DNA of 64,000 nt from contig NZ_WCHR01000012.1 of NCBI RefSeq assembly GCF_008973825.1, positions 62,001-126,000 on the forward strand, written 5' to 3'. This document shows, piece by piece, positions 5,127 to 64,000 of this stretch. The DNA is from Gemmobacter serpentinus. GTDB taxonomy: Bacteria > Pseudomonadota > Alphaproteobacteria > Rhodobacterales > Rhodobacteraceae. The notes beneath the pieces are model-generated. The model was not told where the DNA came from, searched no databases, and worked only from the letters and a program-made list of their open reading frames with translations. The position numbers were made by a program, and so were the translations under genes. Within the stretch, counting starts at the first letter, position 1. Each line of letters starts with the position of its first letter.

Positions 5127-5624
5127 GTGACGCTGTTAGGTGGGGCCTTGGTGTCGCCCAATCGTTTCTGAAGGGGTGACCGAAGCCATGACCGAGGTCA
5201 TGGGTGTCCTCATCCGCTGCGCCGCTCTGGCTCGCAGGGCACCGGCAAGCCGCCCGCCCCGCCATCGGCGGGCGCTGTCCTTTGTTCCAAACAGGCATGG
5301 GGTCTGGCCCGGACCAGACACGCGGGCGTGGAAACGCGATGCGTTTCCTGATCCGCCCGCGATTGGCTTAACAGCTTTGTCACCCCGGCGGGGGCGAAGC
5401 GCCCGCCGATGGCGGGGTGGGCACTGGCCGAGGCCTTTGTCGCCCCGGCTCTTCCGTTAGCCTCGTCTGCCCGTGCCCTCGGCAATGGCCAAGGTCAGAT
5501 GGCTGCGTTCCGGCCTACCTCCCGTCACCTTCCATCCTTTCATCCCTCCGTCACGCATTCTTTATGCGCCCCCGCTGGCCCCGCCGAACGGCAGCGGCTA
5601 TCGTGCCCACAATCAGGAGTGGCC
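5127..5624. other. Intergenic region with a long-range inverted repeat
   Basis: No protein is recognised in this 498-base gap. It contains a near-perfect 25-bp inverted repeat, arms 5252-5276 and 5398-5422 (one mismatch), separated by 121 bases; each arm includes GCCATCGGCGGGCGCT or its complement. The rest is GC-rich without recognisable signals until the Shine-Dalgarno of the next gene. Confidence 0.5.
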
Positions 5625-6170
5625 ATGGCCGACGAAACGCCCCTTGAAGAGACACCGCGCTGGTCCGCCAAGGGCCGGCGGATGCGTGGTTTCGAGGCGA
5701 CCTCGGGCCTGCTGAAAGACCGCATCCGCGCCGCAGGCGAAAGCCGGGGCTTTGCCGTCACCCGCCTGTTGACCCATTGGCCGGATGTGGTGGGCGCCGA
5801 TCTGGCCCGCGTCACAAGGCCGGTGAAGGTGGGCTATGCCAAGGGGGCCTTCGGCGCCACGCTGACGCTTCTGGTCAAGCCGACTGACGCGCCCATCGTC
5901 CAGATGCAACTGCCGCGCATCAAGGATCGGGTGAATGCCTGTTACGGCTATGCCGCCATCGGCCGCGTCACCCTGACCCAGACCGCGCCCATGGGCTTTG
6001 CCGAGGGTCAGGCCCAGTTCGGCCCCGCGCCGACCCCGCCCGAGAAACCAGCCCCTTCGCCAGAGATCGCAGCCCTTGCGCGCGAGACAGCCGGGGATGT
6101 CCATGACGAGGGGCTGCGCAAGGCGCTTGAAACCCTCGCGCAGAATATCTTAACTCGCCGCAGAACCTGA
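5625..6170 (+). CDS. DUF721 (DciA-like) protein
   Basis: A 181-residue protein with the DUF721 core: an N-terminal ARG-rich segment (SAKGRRMRGFEATSGLLKDR), then VTRLLTHWPDVVGADLARVTRPVKV, which is the conserved WxxVVG region of DciA relatives, and a beta-rich stretch ending in RIKDRVNACYGYAAIGRVTL. DciA-family proteins help load the replicative helicase DnaB in bacteria lacking DnaC; whether the alphaproteobacterial version does so is inference. The start at 5625 has AGGAG 5 bases upstream. It is 10 bases upstream of the DsbA-like gene and probably cotranscribed. Confidence 0.8.
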   Translation: MADETPLEETPRWSAKGRRMRGFEATSGLLKDRIRAAGESRGFAVTRLLTHWPDVVGADLARVTRPVKVGYAKGAFGATLTLLVKPTDAPIVQMQLPRIKDRVNACYGYAAIGRVTLTQTAPMGFAEGQAQFGPAPTPPEKPAPSPEIAALARETAGDVHDEGLRKALETLAQNILTRRRT

Positions 6171-8737: not shown

Positions 8738-9922
8738 ATGACCCCGCTTGGCCTGTCTCTTTACCATTTCGCTCAGCGGCGCGGGGCCGGATCGGCCGAG
8801 ATATGGCCGGAACGTCCTTCCGGGCGGTTGATCTGGCTGCACGCGCAAGGGGCCGAGCAGGCCCTTGCCATGGCCGAACTGGCGCGCCATCTGCGGCAGG
8901 AAGACGGCCATATCGTGCTGCTGACCGCGCCGGAACGCCCGCCCGGGATTCCCGATGATGTGCTTTGGGCCCCCCCGCCTGCAGAGCGCCCAGAGGCAGT
9001 GCGCGCCGCGATGAACCATTGGCGACCCGACGCCCTGCTGTTTTCCGGCGGGGAACTGCGTCCTGCCCTTGTGCATGAGGCGGCGGCGCGTCATCTGCCT
9101 ATGGCGCTGGTCGAGGCGCGGGCCCCGCATCTGCCTTCGGGCCGCGAAGGCTGGTATCCCGGCCTGCTGAAATCCACGCTGGCGCAGATGCAGGCGGTCT
9201 TTGCCGTTGATGATGCGGCCCTGAAGGCGCTGCGCAAGGCGGCGGCCCCGGGCCTAGTGCTTACGGGGCGGATGGAACGTCCCTCGCAGGTTCTGCCCGG
9301 CAATGAGGCAGAGCGTGAGGCATTGGCCGCCCTGATGAATACGCGCCCGATCTGGCTGGCGGCTTCTGTGCCCGCCAGCGAGGAGGCGGCGATCATCGAG
9401 GCGCATCGCGCGGGCCTCAGGCTTGCGCATCGTCTGTTGCTGATCCTGATGCCGGATGATCCGGCGCGCATCCCGGATCTGGCGGCGCGGCTGGCCGAAC
9501 GGGAAGGCTGGCAGGTGGCGCAGCGCCCCGCAGATGAGGAACCGGACGCGGAAACCGAGGTGTTCCTGGTCGATAGCAGCGAGATCGGTCTGTGGTATCG
9601 GTTGTCGCCGATCACCTTTCTGGGCGGATCACTGGCAGGCGAGGGCTGCCTGCGCGACCCGATGGAGGCAGCAGCCCTTGGGTCTTCGCTGATCCATGGG
9701 CCAAGGCCGGGGGCATTCGGCTCGGTGATGGGGCGGCTTGGCGCGGCGCGCGCCGCGCGCTCGGTCGGATCCCCCGTCGATCTGGCTGACGCCCTGGCAG
9801 AGCTGCTGTCACCCGACCGCGCCGCGAAACTGGCGCAGGCCGCCTGGGCTATCGCATCGGACGGGGTGGAGGCGACAGTGCGGGTTCATCAGTTGATCCG
9901 CAAGATGTTGGGGGAAGACTGA
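8738..9922 (+). CDS. waaA: 3-deoxy-D-manno-octulosonic acid (Kdo) transferase
   Basis: A 394-residue GT30-type glycosyltransferase that should add Kdo from CMP-Kdo to lipid A precursor at the inner membrane. N-terminal domain: [11 protein letters not shown], comparable to the family's HxVSVGE segment with the catalytic Glu kept but spacing shorter. C-terminal domain: [31 protein letters not shown], matching the family's FxGGSL...EPAALG motif. The protein is somewhat shorter than the usual 420-430 residues and lacks an obvious N-terminal membrane anchor. Its stop overlaps the lpxK start (TGATG), which supports the assignment. Confidence 0.85.
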
Positions 9923-56638: not shown

Positions 56639-56689
56639 TTTTCGCCCCGTCCTGCCCTTGCGGGCAAGACAGGGCAGTGAGATGTTCAG

Positions 56690-56761
56690 CCCACAGGCCC
56701 ACAGGCCCACAGGCCCACAGGCCCACAGGCCCACAGGCCCACAGGCCCACAGGCCCACAGG
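56690..56761. repeat. Octamer tandem repeat, 9 perfect copies of CCCACAGG
   Basis: 72 bases of exact 8-bp units between the lpd terminator and the ecm stop, outside either coding region. Second octamer array in the window, with a different unit. Confidence 0.92.
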
Positions 56762-56836
56762 CCTGCGATCATTCAGGGTCTGCTGGTCAGAGGGGGCATT
56801 CGGGTCCGAAGGCGGGAAAGCCGTCAATGCCCGCGA

Positions 56837-61739: not shown

Positions 61740-63395
61740 TCAACGGGCGAAGCGCTTGTATTTCACGCGCTTGGGGTTCACCGAATCCGGCCCCAGACGG
61801 CGGATCTTGTCCTGCTCATAGGCTTCGAAGTTGCCCTCGAACCATTCGACATGGGCGTCGCCTTCAAATGCCAGGATATGGGTGCAGAGACGGTCCAGGA
61901 AGAAACGGTCGTGGCTGATGATGATCGCGCAGCCCGCGAAATCCTCGATCGCGGCTTCCAGCGCCTGCAGGGTTTCGACGTCCAGATCGTTGGTCGGTTC
62001 GTCAAGCAGCAGCACGTTGCCGCCCGATTTCAGCAGCTTGGCCATGTGGACGCGGTTGCGTTCACCACCCGAAAGCAGGCCCACCTTCTTCTGCTGGTCG
62101 GTGCCCTTGAAGTTGAAGGCGCCGGTATAGACGCGGCTGTTCATCTGCATGTCGCCCAGATGGATCACCTCGGCCCCGCCAGACACCTCTTCCCACACCG
62201 TCTTGTCGGGGTCGAGCGCGTCGCGCGACTGGTCGACATAGGCCAGCTGCACGGTGGAGCCCAGGGTGATCGTGCCCTCATCCGGGGTTTCCTGGCCGGT
62301 AATCATGCGGAACAGTGTCGATTTCCCGGCACCGTTCGGTCCGATCACGCCGACAATGGCACCCGGCGGGATGGTGAAGGACAGATCCTCGATCAGCAGG
62401 CGGTCGCCCATGGCCTTTTTCAGACCCTCGACCTCGATCACCTTATTGCCCAGACGTTCGCCGTTCGGGATGATGATCTGCGCGCTGGTCGCACGCTCCA
62501 TGACGGTCTGACTGGCCATCTCGTTATAGCGGGCGAGACGGGCCTTGCCCTTGGACTGGCGGGCCTTTGCGCCGGAGCGGATCCACTCCAATTCCTTCTC
62601 AAGCGCTTTCTGCTTGGATTTGTCCTCGCGGGCTTCCTGCGCCATGCGCTTGGCCTTCTGGTCCAGCCAAGCGGAATAGTTGCCCTCATAGGGGATGCCG
62701 CGACCACGGTCGAGTTCAAGGATCCAGCCGGTGATATCATCCAAGAAGTAGCGGTCATGGGTCACGATCAGGATCGTGCCCTTGTAATCGATCAGGTGCT
62801 TTTGCAGCCAGGCGATGGATTCCGCGTCCAGGTGGTTGGTCGGTTCGTCCAGAAGCAGCATGTCGGGCTTCTCGAGCAGCAGCTTGCACAGCGCGACCCG
62901 GCGACGTTCCCCGCCCGACAGCGTGGTCACATCGGAATCATCCGGCGGGCAGCGCAGCGCATCCATGGCGACGCCCACCGTCGCCTCCAGTTCCCACAGG
63001 TTGCCGGCGTCGATCTGGTCCTGCAACGCCGCCATCTCGTCGGCGGTCTCGTCGGAATAGTTCATCGCCAGTTCGTTGTAGCGATCAAGGATCGCCTGCT
63101 GTTCGGCCACGCCCAACATGACGTTTTCCTTGGCGGTCAGCGCGGGGTCCAGATAGGGCTCCTGCGCCAGATAGCCGACCTTGGCACCCTTGGCGGCCCA
63201 GGCCTCGCCCTTGAAGTCCTTGTCCATGCCCGCCATGATTTTCAACAGCGTGGACTTACCGGCACCGTTGACGCCGACCACACCGATCTTCACGCCGGGC
63301 AGGAAGTTCAGGTGGATGTTTTCAAAGCAGGTCTTGCCACCGGGATAGGTCTTGGAGACGCCTTCCATGTGATAGACGTATTGATACGAGGCCAT
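61740..63395 (-). CDS. ettA: Energy-dependent translational throttle protein EttA (ABC-F)
   Basis: A 551-residue soluble tandem ABC ATPase. First Walker A GVVGVNGAGKSTLLKIM, signature TLSGGERRRVALCKLL, Walker B MLLLDEPTNHLD; second Walker A GVIGPNGAGKSTLFRMI, signature LLSGGERNRVHMAKLL, Walker B VLLLDEPTNDLD. The EttA-specific linker (RMAQEAREDKSKQKALEKEL, SKGKARLARYNEM) is present. It binds the ribosomal E site and controls early elongation by ATP/ADP ratio. A reverse transcriptase gene lies 80 bases upstream on the same strand. Confidence 0.96.
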   Translation of the reverse strand: MASYQYVYHMEGVSKTYPGGKTCFENIHLNFLPGVKIGVVGVNGAGKSTLLKIMAGMDKDFKGEAWAAKGAKVGYLAQEPYLDPALTAKENVMLGVAEQQAILDRYNELAMNYSDETADEMAALQDQIDAGNLWELEATVGVAMDALRCPPDDSDVTTLSGGERRRVALCKLLLEKPDMLLLDEPTNHLDAESIAWLQKHLIDYKGTILIVTHDRYFLDDITGWILELDRGRGIPYEGNYSAWLDQKAKRMAQEAREDKSKQKALEKELEWIRSGAKARQSKGKARLARYNEMASQTVMERATSAQIIIPNGERLGNKVIEVEGLKKAMGDRLLIEDLSFTIPPGAIVGVIGPNGAGKSTLFRMITGQETPDEGTITLGSTVQLAYVDQSRDALDPDKTVWEEVSGGAEVIHLGDMQMNSRVYTGAFNFKGTDQQKKVGLLSGGERNRVHMAKLLKSGGNVLLLDEPTNDLDVETLQALEAAIEDFAGCAIIISHDRFFLDRLCTHILAFEGDAHVEWFEGNFEAYEQDKIRRLGPDSVNPKRVKYKRFAR

Positions 63396-63475
63396 GCGGG
63401 ATCTCCGGTGTCGAGCGGTTGTGCCTAGGATTGGCGCGTATGTAGCGGATCAGCAGGGAAAGGGCAACGCGCGGG

Positions 63476-64000
63476 TCACCGGGCAGGGGGGACGGTTCTG
63501 GCGGAGGCCGAAACCAGTTGCAAGCTTTGCGAGAGGCGGGCTGCGCGGTGAGGGTTCAGCTGGGCCAACCAGGCGATGCGCCCGGACAGGTGGCCCAGAA
63601 AGGCCATATCTTGGCGGCGTGGATCGTCAGGCTGCTGCAGGCGGTGCAGGATGGCCTTCAGCCGATCATATTCGACGCGGGGAAGATTGGTGTGATGGTT
63701 CACCAAGATCCCGGTGACTTTCTGTTGCTGATGGGATGGCATCACCCTGGTCTTGCGGTGATTGGGGCGAAACCCCTCCTCTGCGCAGATCTCGGGCACT
63801 GCGCGCAAAAGGATCGGTGCGATCCGTGCGTCGCCGGAAAAGCTCAGATCATCGGCATAGCGGCTGTATTGCGCATCAAGGCTGCGGGCGAGTGCGGCCA
63901 GCCTGCAATCCAGCCGGAAGGCCAGCAGATTGGCCAAGGCGGGCGAGGTTGGCGCGCCCTGCGGCAGATGGCGGGCGTGCAGTCTGCCGGTCAAGGTGGG
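63476..64000 (-). CDS. Retron-type reverse transcriptase, C-terminal half, truncated by window edge
   Basis: The last 174 residues of a reverse transcriptase, running off the right edge without a start. RT block 4 LPQGAPTSPALANLLAF at visible residues 12-28, the catalytic block 5 SRYADDLSFSGD with YADD at 48-51 (bases 63848-63859), GFRPNHRKTRVM (block 6), and QKVTGILVNHHTNLPR with the VTG triplet at 95-97, which is the retron hallmark; the tail includes HLSGRIAWLAQLNP. Priming RNA (msr/msd) would lie 5' of the gene, beyond the window. A group II-intron maturase is unlikely given the VTG segment and missing maturase X domain. Confidence 0.85.
   Translation of the reverse strand, partial: PTLTGRLHARHLPQGAPTSPALANLLAFRLDCRLAALARSLDAQYSRYADDLSFSGDARIAPILLRAVPEICAEEGFRPNHRKTRVMPSHQQQKVTGILVNHHTNLPRVEYDRLKAILHRLQQPDDPRRQDMAFLGHLSGRIAWLAQLNPHRAARLSQSLQLVSASARTVPPAR

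What the first reader, a model, noticed from the sequence alone, without database searches (positions are those of the whole stretch)
63476..64000. Truncated retron-type reverse transcriptase beside ettA
A YADD polymerase motif, LPQGAPTSP and the VTG triplet identify a retron-lineage RT in otherwise core chromosome. Retrons are anti-phage systems with a reverse-transcribed RNA and an effector; the msr/msd and any effector would be to the right of base 64000, and no toxin-like partner is present downstream (ettA starts 80 bases after). It may be a solitary RT or the start of an undescribed retron type.
Basis: partly seen in the sequence, partly recalled or inferred. Interest (0 to 1): 0.75.

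Follow-up and report, generated by a model that had tools for sequence, protein, structure and literature searches.

The report
Solitary retron between nadD and ettA
The cut-off gene at the window's edge is the end of what looks like a complete retron, a reverse transcriptase with its own folded template RNA, sitting among housekeeping genes with no detectable toxin partner, so it could show what a retron does without a nearby toxin.

Summary
Window 63476-64000 (minus) is the C-terminal 174 aa of a reverse transcriptase whose full length, read from the same genome, is 445 aa. Directly 5' of it, beyond base 64000, lies a 143-nt RNA with inverted a1/a2 ends, stem-loops and a long msd-like hairpin. 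A covariance model of this RNA hit 17 of 394 family genomes: the 15 that carry a full-length RT of this clade, one where the contig ends inside the RT, and one remnant beside nadD without RT. In 19 aligned RNAs, 19 of 25 pairs show changes on both sides. By sequence it is a retron. PADLOC's best models are RT_other/RT_outgroup, not a numbered type. No partner gene recurs. Ten of 17 homologues sit beside nadD, eight of them with ettA downstream, and form one clade; eleven relatives have empty sites. The RT has a ~107-aa N-terminal domain without database match. Best reading: an old, chromosomal, effector-less retron lineage. Whether msDNA is made, and what it does, was not testable. Known kind, new variant.

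The parts
63476..64000 (-). C-terminal 174 aa of the retron reverse transcriptase (gene continues to window-equivalent 64813 = G000:C3:126813; 445 aa in all). The msr-msd-like RNA (143 nt) lies outside the window at window-equivalent 64810-64952 = G000:C3:126810-126952, same strand; its a2 end overlaps the RT's TTG.
   Evidence: RNA:
63396..63475 (-). 80-base gap between the RT stop and the ettA start; too short for an effector gene

Best explanation
It is a solitary (effector-less) retron of the PADLOC RT_other/RT_outgroup clade, kept mainly by descent beside nadD and ettA in a few members of the family. Shown by sequence: a ~143-nt RNA begins about 35 bases after a TTGAC element, its ends pair (a1/a2), it carries stem-loops and a long hairpin, and the RT gene starts at its 3' end. 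Inferred: the RT binds this RNA, primes at a guanosine just after a1 (CAAG context), copies the msd hairpin into a short single-stranded DNA of perhaps 60-75 nt that stays linked to the RNA, and forms an RT-msDNA particle. Also inferred: because no partner gene recurs, the particle works without a neighbouring toxin, through the RT's own ~107-aa N-terminal domain or on a host factor encoded elsewhere, most likely as a phage or stress sensor as in other retrons. ettA and nadD are most likely only the address.
For: RT (17 rows): YADD in 16 and YVDD in 1; region X A-x-x-H invariant; VTG in 15. RNA: the MFE folds of 17 loci each show the a1/a2 stem, the GGGG-N3-CCCC loop and the msd hairpin; 19 of 25 pairs with both-side changes, 96.6% of cells paired against 78.6% shuffled and 31-50% slid; cognate a1:a2 duplex mean -25.6 against -12.4 kcal/mol non-cognate, cognate best for 16 of 17. 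The model built from 8 RNAs finds the RNA at loci not used to build it and co-occurs with the RT in 394 genomes. TTGAC 30-50 bases before a1 in 10 of 17 loci, 0.23 expected in mononucleotide shuffles. One site, one clade: SH-aLRT 98 for ten RTs; remnant in G218 beside nadD; RT distance follows nadD distance, Mantel r 0.61, p 0.002, 8 loci. dN/dS 0.26-0.33 for three pairs. No shared partner.
Against: No msDNA, RNA or protein has been seen; all is in silico. Presence is very patchy (15 of 394 family genomes; 2 of 11 and 1 of 15 within two genera), so descent needs many losses, or exchange between genera through the flanks. G129 has an RNA of the ettA-site sort (130.5 bits) but no nadD in the 4.1 kb upstream that its contig holds, so the site is not wholly fixed; in G434 no ettA was found near, and in G218 none within the 6.6 kb after the remnant. 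RT distance follows ettA only weakly (r 0.29, p 0.08). With windows fixed beforehand the cognate a2 was best for only 10 of 17, though the means still differ (-35.0 against -23.8). A strict sigma-70 consensus scan found no promoter in L003 1380-3060. A trans-encoded or fast-changing effector would escape the neighbour search.
Confidence: 0.63

Rival explanations
1. A degenerate toxin-linked retron: it once had an effector beside the RT, lost it, and the RT-RNA pair is a slowly decaying leftover.
For: Retrons typically have a toxic effector (PMC12548924, abstract start and one passage seen). The element is being lost: empty sites and one RNA remnant; the G928 copy has a stop just after YADD.
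Against: The RT frame and both catalytic aspartates are kept in 17 of 17 loci of A3, dN/dS 0.26-0.33, and RNA pairing is kept through changes on both sides. Relatives in Burkholderia pyrrocinia and Tsukamurella also stand without an evident effector, so the solitary state looks old.
Confidence: 0.13
2. A defence retron whose effector is encoded elsewhere, or is the GNAT acetyltransferase near the RT at this locus (some GNAT proteins are toxins, recalled).
For: A GNAT gene lies next to or within about 0.65 kb of the RT in 5 of 10 ettA-site loci (L003, L051, L038, L037, L041), and another GNAT beside L045.
Against: A related GNAT stands between nadD and ettA in four congeners without the RT (L143, L144, L145, L149) and was not detected in the other five ettA-site loci, so it belongs to the locus. 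No unlinked partner was searched for genome-wide.
Confidence: 0.18
3. Not a retron but a related solitary RT with another job (group II-like, DGR-like or Drt-like).
For: The RT is solitary, and the asparagine of NAXXH is A, G or S in all 17 rows.
Against: Retron models score far above group II and Drt models; msr-msd-like RNA with a1/a2 ends directly upstream; a review notes two validated retron RTs that also lack that asparagine (PMC6868368, passages).
Confidence: 0.04

Closest known systems
PADLOC-DB models RT_other (PDLC02949) and RT_outgroup (PDLC03740)
   Same: The RT matches both over nearly its whole length, N-terminal domain included (3e-128 and 5e-121); so do RTs from G637, Burkholderia pyrrocinia and Tsukamurella tyrosinosolvens.
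   Different: They are sequence groups; I found no described effector or function for them in what I could read. The paper behind the types (Mestre 2020) is not held.
Myxobacterial retrons Mxa1 (Mx162), Mxa2 (Mx65), Sau1 (Sa163), Nex2 (Ne144)
   Same: RT with an extended N-terminus of unknown function; several thought to be inherited by descent (PMC6868368, passages).
   Different: Mx162 makes a 241-nt transcript and a 162-nt msd; here the RNA is 141-159 nt. Homology of the N-terminal regions was not tested: no myxobacterial sequence was reached.
Retron type XIII (PADLOC RT_XIII)
   Same: Next best model (8.8e-95).
   Different: RTs with RT_XIII as best match in the same family (L033-L035) and L059 form another clade, and R1 gave no hit with E below 1 at L033-L036 or L059.
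Retron-Bth1 (PMC12548924, one passage)
   Same: A retron reported without an obvious effector and with an unclassified RT.
   Different: On a mobile element and interrupted by a group II intron, by that passage; no sequence comparison was made.

Membership tests
Retron | RT of the retron lineage with YADD, region X and VTG | tested here: met
   in region X the N of NAXXH is replaced, A and H are kept
Retron | Structured msr-msd RNA upstream of the RT, with inverted a1/a2 ends | tested here: met
Retron | Priming guanosine at the end of or just after a1 (AGC or similar) | tested here: inconclusive
   AAGC follows a1 in the window's own RNA; the bases after a1 vary between loci and MFE stems end at different points
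Retron | msDNA with a 2'-5' branch made in the cell | not testable with these tools
   needs nucleic acid from cells
Tripartite defence retron (numbered types) | Linked or fused known effector | tested here: not met
   Beyond genes of the nadD-ettA neighbourhood only Crp-like regulators (L037, L045), histidine kinases (L045, L047) and ABC ATPases recur; RT shows only RVT_1 in Pfam; N-terminal domain without match
Retron type XIII | RT best matched by RT_XIII | tested here: not met
   RT_other 427 bits, RT_XIII 316 bits; separate clade
Myxobacterial (Mx162-like) retrons | Homologous N-terminal extension and msDNA layout | not tested
   no myxobacterial sequence reached
Group II intron or DGR RT | RT best matched by those models | tested here: not met
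   group II 2.1e-11 against retron St85 7.9e-52; no DGR model appeared in the listings

The most novel reading that the evidence does not exclude
A domesticated retron lineage that does not use a linked toxin: the msDNA particle, with the orphan N-terminal domain of the RT, is itself the working part, doing a cellular (perhaps non-abortive) job that selection keeps in chromosomes of Alpha- and Betaproteobacteria and, by the RT, Actinomycetota.
Probability: 0.3. Interest if true: 0.8.

Novelty: new variant of a known kind. Interest (0 to 1): 0.52.

Why it matters
Retrons are now mostly read as toxin-guarding anti-phage systems, yet some lack a clear association with a nearby effector (PMC8867640, passage). 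Here is a compact set with an RT, an RNA defined by covariation, empty sister sites and a remnant: a clean comparison to ask what a retron does without a linked toxin. It also gives a covariance model for an RNA that no Rfam family matched at E up to 1 in the five loci searched.

Tried and rejected
GNAT acetyltransferase as effector: rejected, since a related GNAT also stands between nadD and ettA in four congeners without the RT. MarR-GNAT (L037, L038, L041): judged a locus gene too, as L145 has both parts without RT. Mobile origin: tblastn of the RT gave 8 plasmid records and 6 phage records, and the search for related loci 80 viral loci (the best 80 of 195); none of these matches reaches the first 70 query residues. 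That does not make the plasmid-record RTs strangers: PADLOC shows the N-terminal domain in the two scanned (L198, L199). But three of the eight records are Burkholderia replicons of 0.88-1.26 Mb and the Tsukamurella record holds polA and rpsA, so they are no evidence for small mobile carriers. Of the viral loci one RT was typed (L060, best RT_XIII).

MAFFT alignments A1, A2, A4 and A5 align a1/a2 poorly; RNAalifold on A4 gave only SL2 and msd, on A5 SL1, SL2 and msd. a1/a2 was therefore counted on single folds, which leans towards pairing because I chose the ends by complementarity; the fixed-window control is weaker (10 of 17). SL1 varies in size, and in the MFE folds of L045 and L048 pairs around SL1/SL2 differ. 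R1 missed the G637 RNA (L057, L195), although its fold shows the same layout, and did not hit Tsukamurella (L199), whose fold is similar but more divergent. Mestre 2020 and Rice and Lampson 1995 are not held; what I say of the numbered types is PADLOC names and recall. PADLOC has its own msr-msd covariance models (PMC9252829, passages) that I could not run, so I do not claim that this RNA is new to print. Literature searches on retron with Rhodobacteraceae, with Roseobacter/Paracoccus/Rhodobacter terms, and with vertical inheritance listed no paper whose title or shown abstract start describes this element; of those listed only PMC8867640 and, elsewhere, three others were opened, by passages. 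Neighbour genes were picked from mechanical ORFs and some picks are antisense.

Full report
WHAT IS THERE. The window is bases 62001-126000 of contig C3 of a 4.26-Mb genome. The frame at 63476-64000 (minus) is the last 174 aa of a gene that runs on to window-equivalent 64813; the full protein has 445 aa from a TTG. Pfam sees only RVT_1 at residues 161-369 (5.5e-20). PADLOC gives RT_other 427 bits over residues 17-439, RT_outgroup 403, RT_XIII 316, the other listed types lower. NCBIfam gives retron St85 7.9e-52 against group II 2.1e-11, all below NCBI's cut-offs. A profile of 17 homologues finds retron RTs first in the PDB, led by Ec86 (3.2e-50) and Ec67. It is the only RVT_1 match found in its genome.

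THE RNA. Directly 5' of the RT, same strand, lies a 143-nt stretch (G000:C3:126810-126952, window-equivalent 64810-64952). Its ends GCAAAGGCGG...CCGCCTTTGC pair; inside are a small stem-loop, a GGGG-N3-CCCC stem-loop and a long hairpin. Fifteen family genomes (own included), one more of the genus (G005) and Frigidibacter sp. SD6-1 give 17 loci. Folded one by one, each shows the a1/a2 stem, the GGGG-N3-CCCC loop and the msd hairpin; the first stem-loop varies. MFE z-scores against dinucleotide shuffles run from -2.8 to -7.5. On the model-based alignment of 19 RNAs, 19 of 25 pairs have a change on both sides and 96.6% of cells pair (shuffles 78.6%, slid partners 31-50%); 0 of 500 shuffles reach any of the five measures. 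That alignment is fitted to the structure and leans towards it. a1/a2 are not in that count; counted from the inner end of each MFE stem they form 12-19 pairs per locus, with three or more pair types at each of 14 positions. The cognate partner is best for 16 of 17, or for 10 of 17 with windows fixed beforehand. TTGAC stands 30-50 bases before a1 in 10 of 17 loci (0.23 expected from mononucleotide shuffles), at 33-37 bases in 9 of the 10 ettA-site loci; a strict sigma-70 scan of L003 1380-3060 finds no site. Rfam has no match to the RNA at E up to 1 in the five loci searched.

CO-OCCURRENCE. The RT search of 394 family genomes gave 19 matches at E <= 1e-40: 15 over nearly the full length, 4 over the core only; these four score best with RT_XIII. 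The RNA model R1, built from 8 RNAs, gave 17 of 394: the same 15 genomes, plus G129, where the RNA is followed by an RT N-terminus and the contig ends, and G218, where only the 5' half of the RNA is left, 66 bases from nadD, with no RT found by tblastn. Six of the 17 (own, G216, G269, G297, G333, G434) supplied rows to R1; the other 11 are independent of it. R1 also finds the RNA before the RT in G928, a genome of the same phylum but another class (E 1.2e-8), and in two Burkholderia records (3e-7 and 4e-6). It missed the AT-richer G637 RNA, whose fold has the same layout, and Tsukamurella. In the class search 3 of 385 genomes passed 1e-60 with the RT_outgroup model: own, G637, G682; G682 scores best with RT_XIII. 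In the phylum search 6 of 398 passed 1e-80 with the 17-row profile; two of them (G903, G951) match only from about position 97-103 on and were not classified.

SITE AND INHERITANCE. In 10 of the 17 loci nadD lies upstream of the RT on the other strand (10 of 10), and ettA lies downstream on the RT's strand in 8 of the 10; G434 (L040) shows no ettA within the 12.5 kb fetched, and G216 (L041) is a 6-kb contig. In six the RT-ettA gap is 30-80 bases; in L037 a MarR-GNAT gene and in L042 about 1.7 kb intervene. Eleven family genomes without the RT show nadD next to ettA directly (7) or with a GNAT between (4). In the RT tree the ten form one clade (SH-aLRT 98), and the 19 ncRNA-bearing RTs included form one clade (99); it is a quick tree without bootstrap, with weak deeper forks, and G928 enters as a piece. 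RT distances follow nadD (Mantel r 0.61, p 0.002, 8 loci) and ettA weakly (r 0.29, p 0.08); ettA and nadD do not follow each other significantly (p 0.17). dN/dS is 0.26-0.33 in three pairs, saturated in a fourth. The simplest account is one arrival at this site in an ancestor, then many losses, one caught half-way (G218). Against a strict version: G129 has an RNA of the ettA-site sort but no nadD in the 4.1 kb upstream that its contig holds, G218 has no ettA in the 6.6 kb after the remnant, and presence is sparse even within genera, 2 of 11 and 1 of 15. Exchange through flanking recombination is not excluded. The other seven members sit elsewhere, with differing neighbours, one of them (L048) beside an IS110-type transposase.

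NO PARTNER. Among the 17 neighbourhoods the genes that recur are nadD, ettA and their further neighbours, ABC ATPases, a MORN-protein region shared by two congeners, and, in two loci each, Crp-like regulators (gap 0.4 and 4.2 kb) and histidine kinases of different make-up (gap about 2 kb). Ten near neighbours from nine loci in Pfam: DCC1-like and a saccharopine-dehydrogenase-like protein (L044), GNAT (L045), an alcohol dehydrogenase (L047), a transposase (L048), nothing (L049), a saccharopine-dehydrogenase-like protein (L050), an ABC permease (L043), MarR-GNAT (L037), a Na/H exchanger (L040). In G637 the RT stands between a deaminase-like gene and dCTP-deaminase- and MurA-like genes, in G928 near fusA- and ribA-like genes (my reading). 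In Burkholderia pyrrocinia it stands between an SDR oxidoreductase and a D-alanyl-D-alanine carboxypeptidase, in Tsukamurella between an HTH protein and a HAD hydrolase (annotations). RNA and RT lie too close together for a gene between them.

THE RT'S EXTRA DOMAIN. About residues 10-110 form a conserved region (47% mean column identity over 17 rows; A, W, LP and several P invariant), without a Pfam match at E up to 5 in the four members tried and without a credible PDB match (best E 0.16). A review (PMC6868368, passages) says that myxobacterial retron RTs carry an extended N-terminus of unknown function and that several of those retrons were probably inherited by descent: the same two traits. 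Whether the domains are homologous was not tested.

MECHANISM. Shown by sequence: promoter-like element, RNA, RT, their coupling, selection on both. Inferred: priming at a G after a1, copying of the msd hairpin, an RT-msDNA particle. Inferred with less confidence: that the particle acts without a linked toxin, through the N-terminal domain or a trans factor, as a sensor of phage or stress. I see no evidence that ettA or nadD is regulated by it.

VERDICT. A retron by sequence, solitary, of a clade that a public defence database already models but assigns to no numbered type: a new variant of a known kind. Interest is moderate; the question of what toxin-free retrons do becomes testable here.

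Noticed in passing
L194 (G218:C68) 5276-5395: Half-deleted copy of the retron RNA (a1 side and both stem-loops, no msd hairpin) 66 bases from nadD, with no RT found: a remnant that records loss of the retron.
   Followed up: yes
L053 9005-9967, L054 6652-7617, L056 9423-10043: In three of four planctomycete loci a retron-like RT (best PADLOC match RT_XIII in these three) is followed, overlapping or about 410 bases on, by an FGE-sulfatase (formylglycine-generating-enzyme-like) gene without PADLOC match: a possible RT partner.
   Followed up: partly
window 61740-63395: The window's ettA is 91% identical to that of another genus (L037) but 80% to that of a congener (L051), while nadD near by is 83% identical within the genus: ettA may have been exchanged between genera.
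   Followed up: no
window 56689-56763: Perfect tandem array of an 8-base unit (GCCCACAG), 9.4 copies, just after the dihydrolipoyl-dehydrogenase-like gene.
   Followed up: no
L003 4468-6558 (beyond the window): Long MORN-repeat protein (696 aa, my reading of the repeats) near nadD, also in some congeners.
   Followed up: no
L003 14757-14862 (beyond the window): Glycine riboswitch aptamer, Rfam RF00504, 57.5 bits.
   Followed up: no
L003 about 9050-9160 (beyond the window): Three tandem in-frame copies of LVLHGVGGRGAH in a carboxylesterase-like gene (my reading).
   Followed up: no
L196 (G928) 5147-6151: Relative of the RT outside the class, with an intact-looking RNA but an internal stop shortly after the YADD motif: possibly a dying copy.
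   Followed up: no
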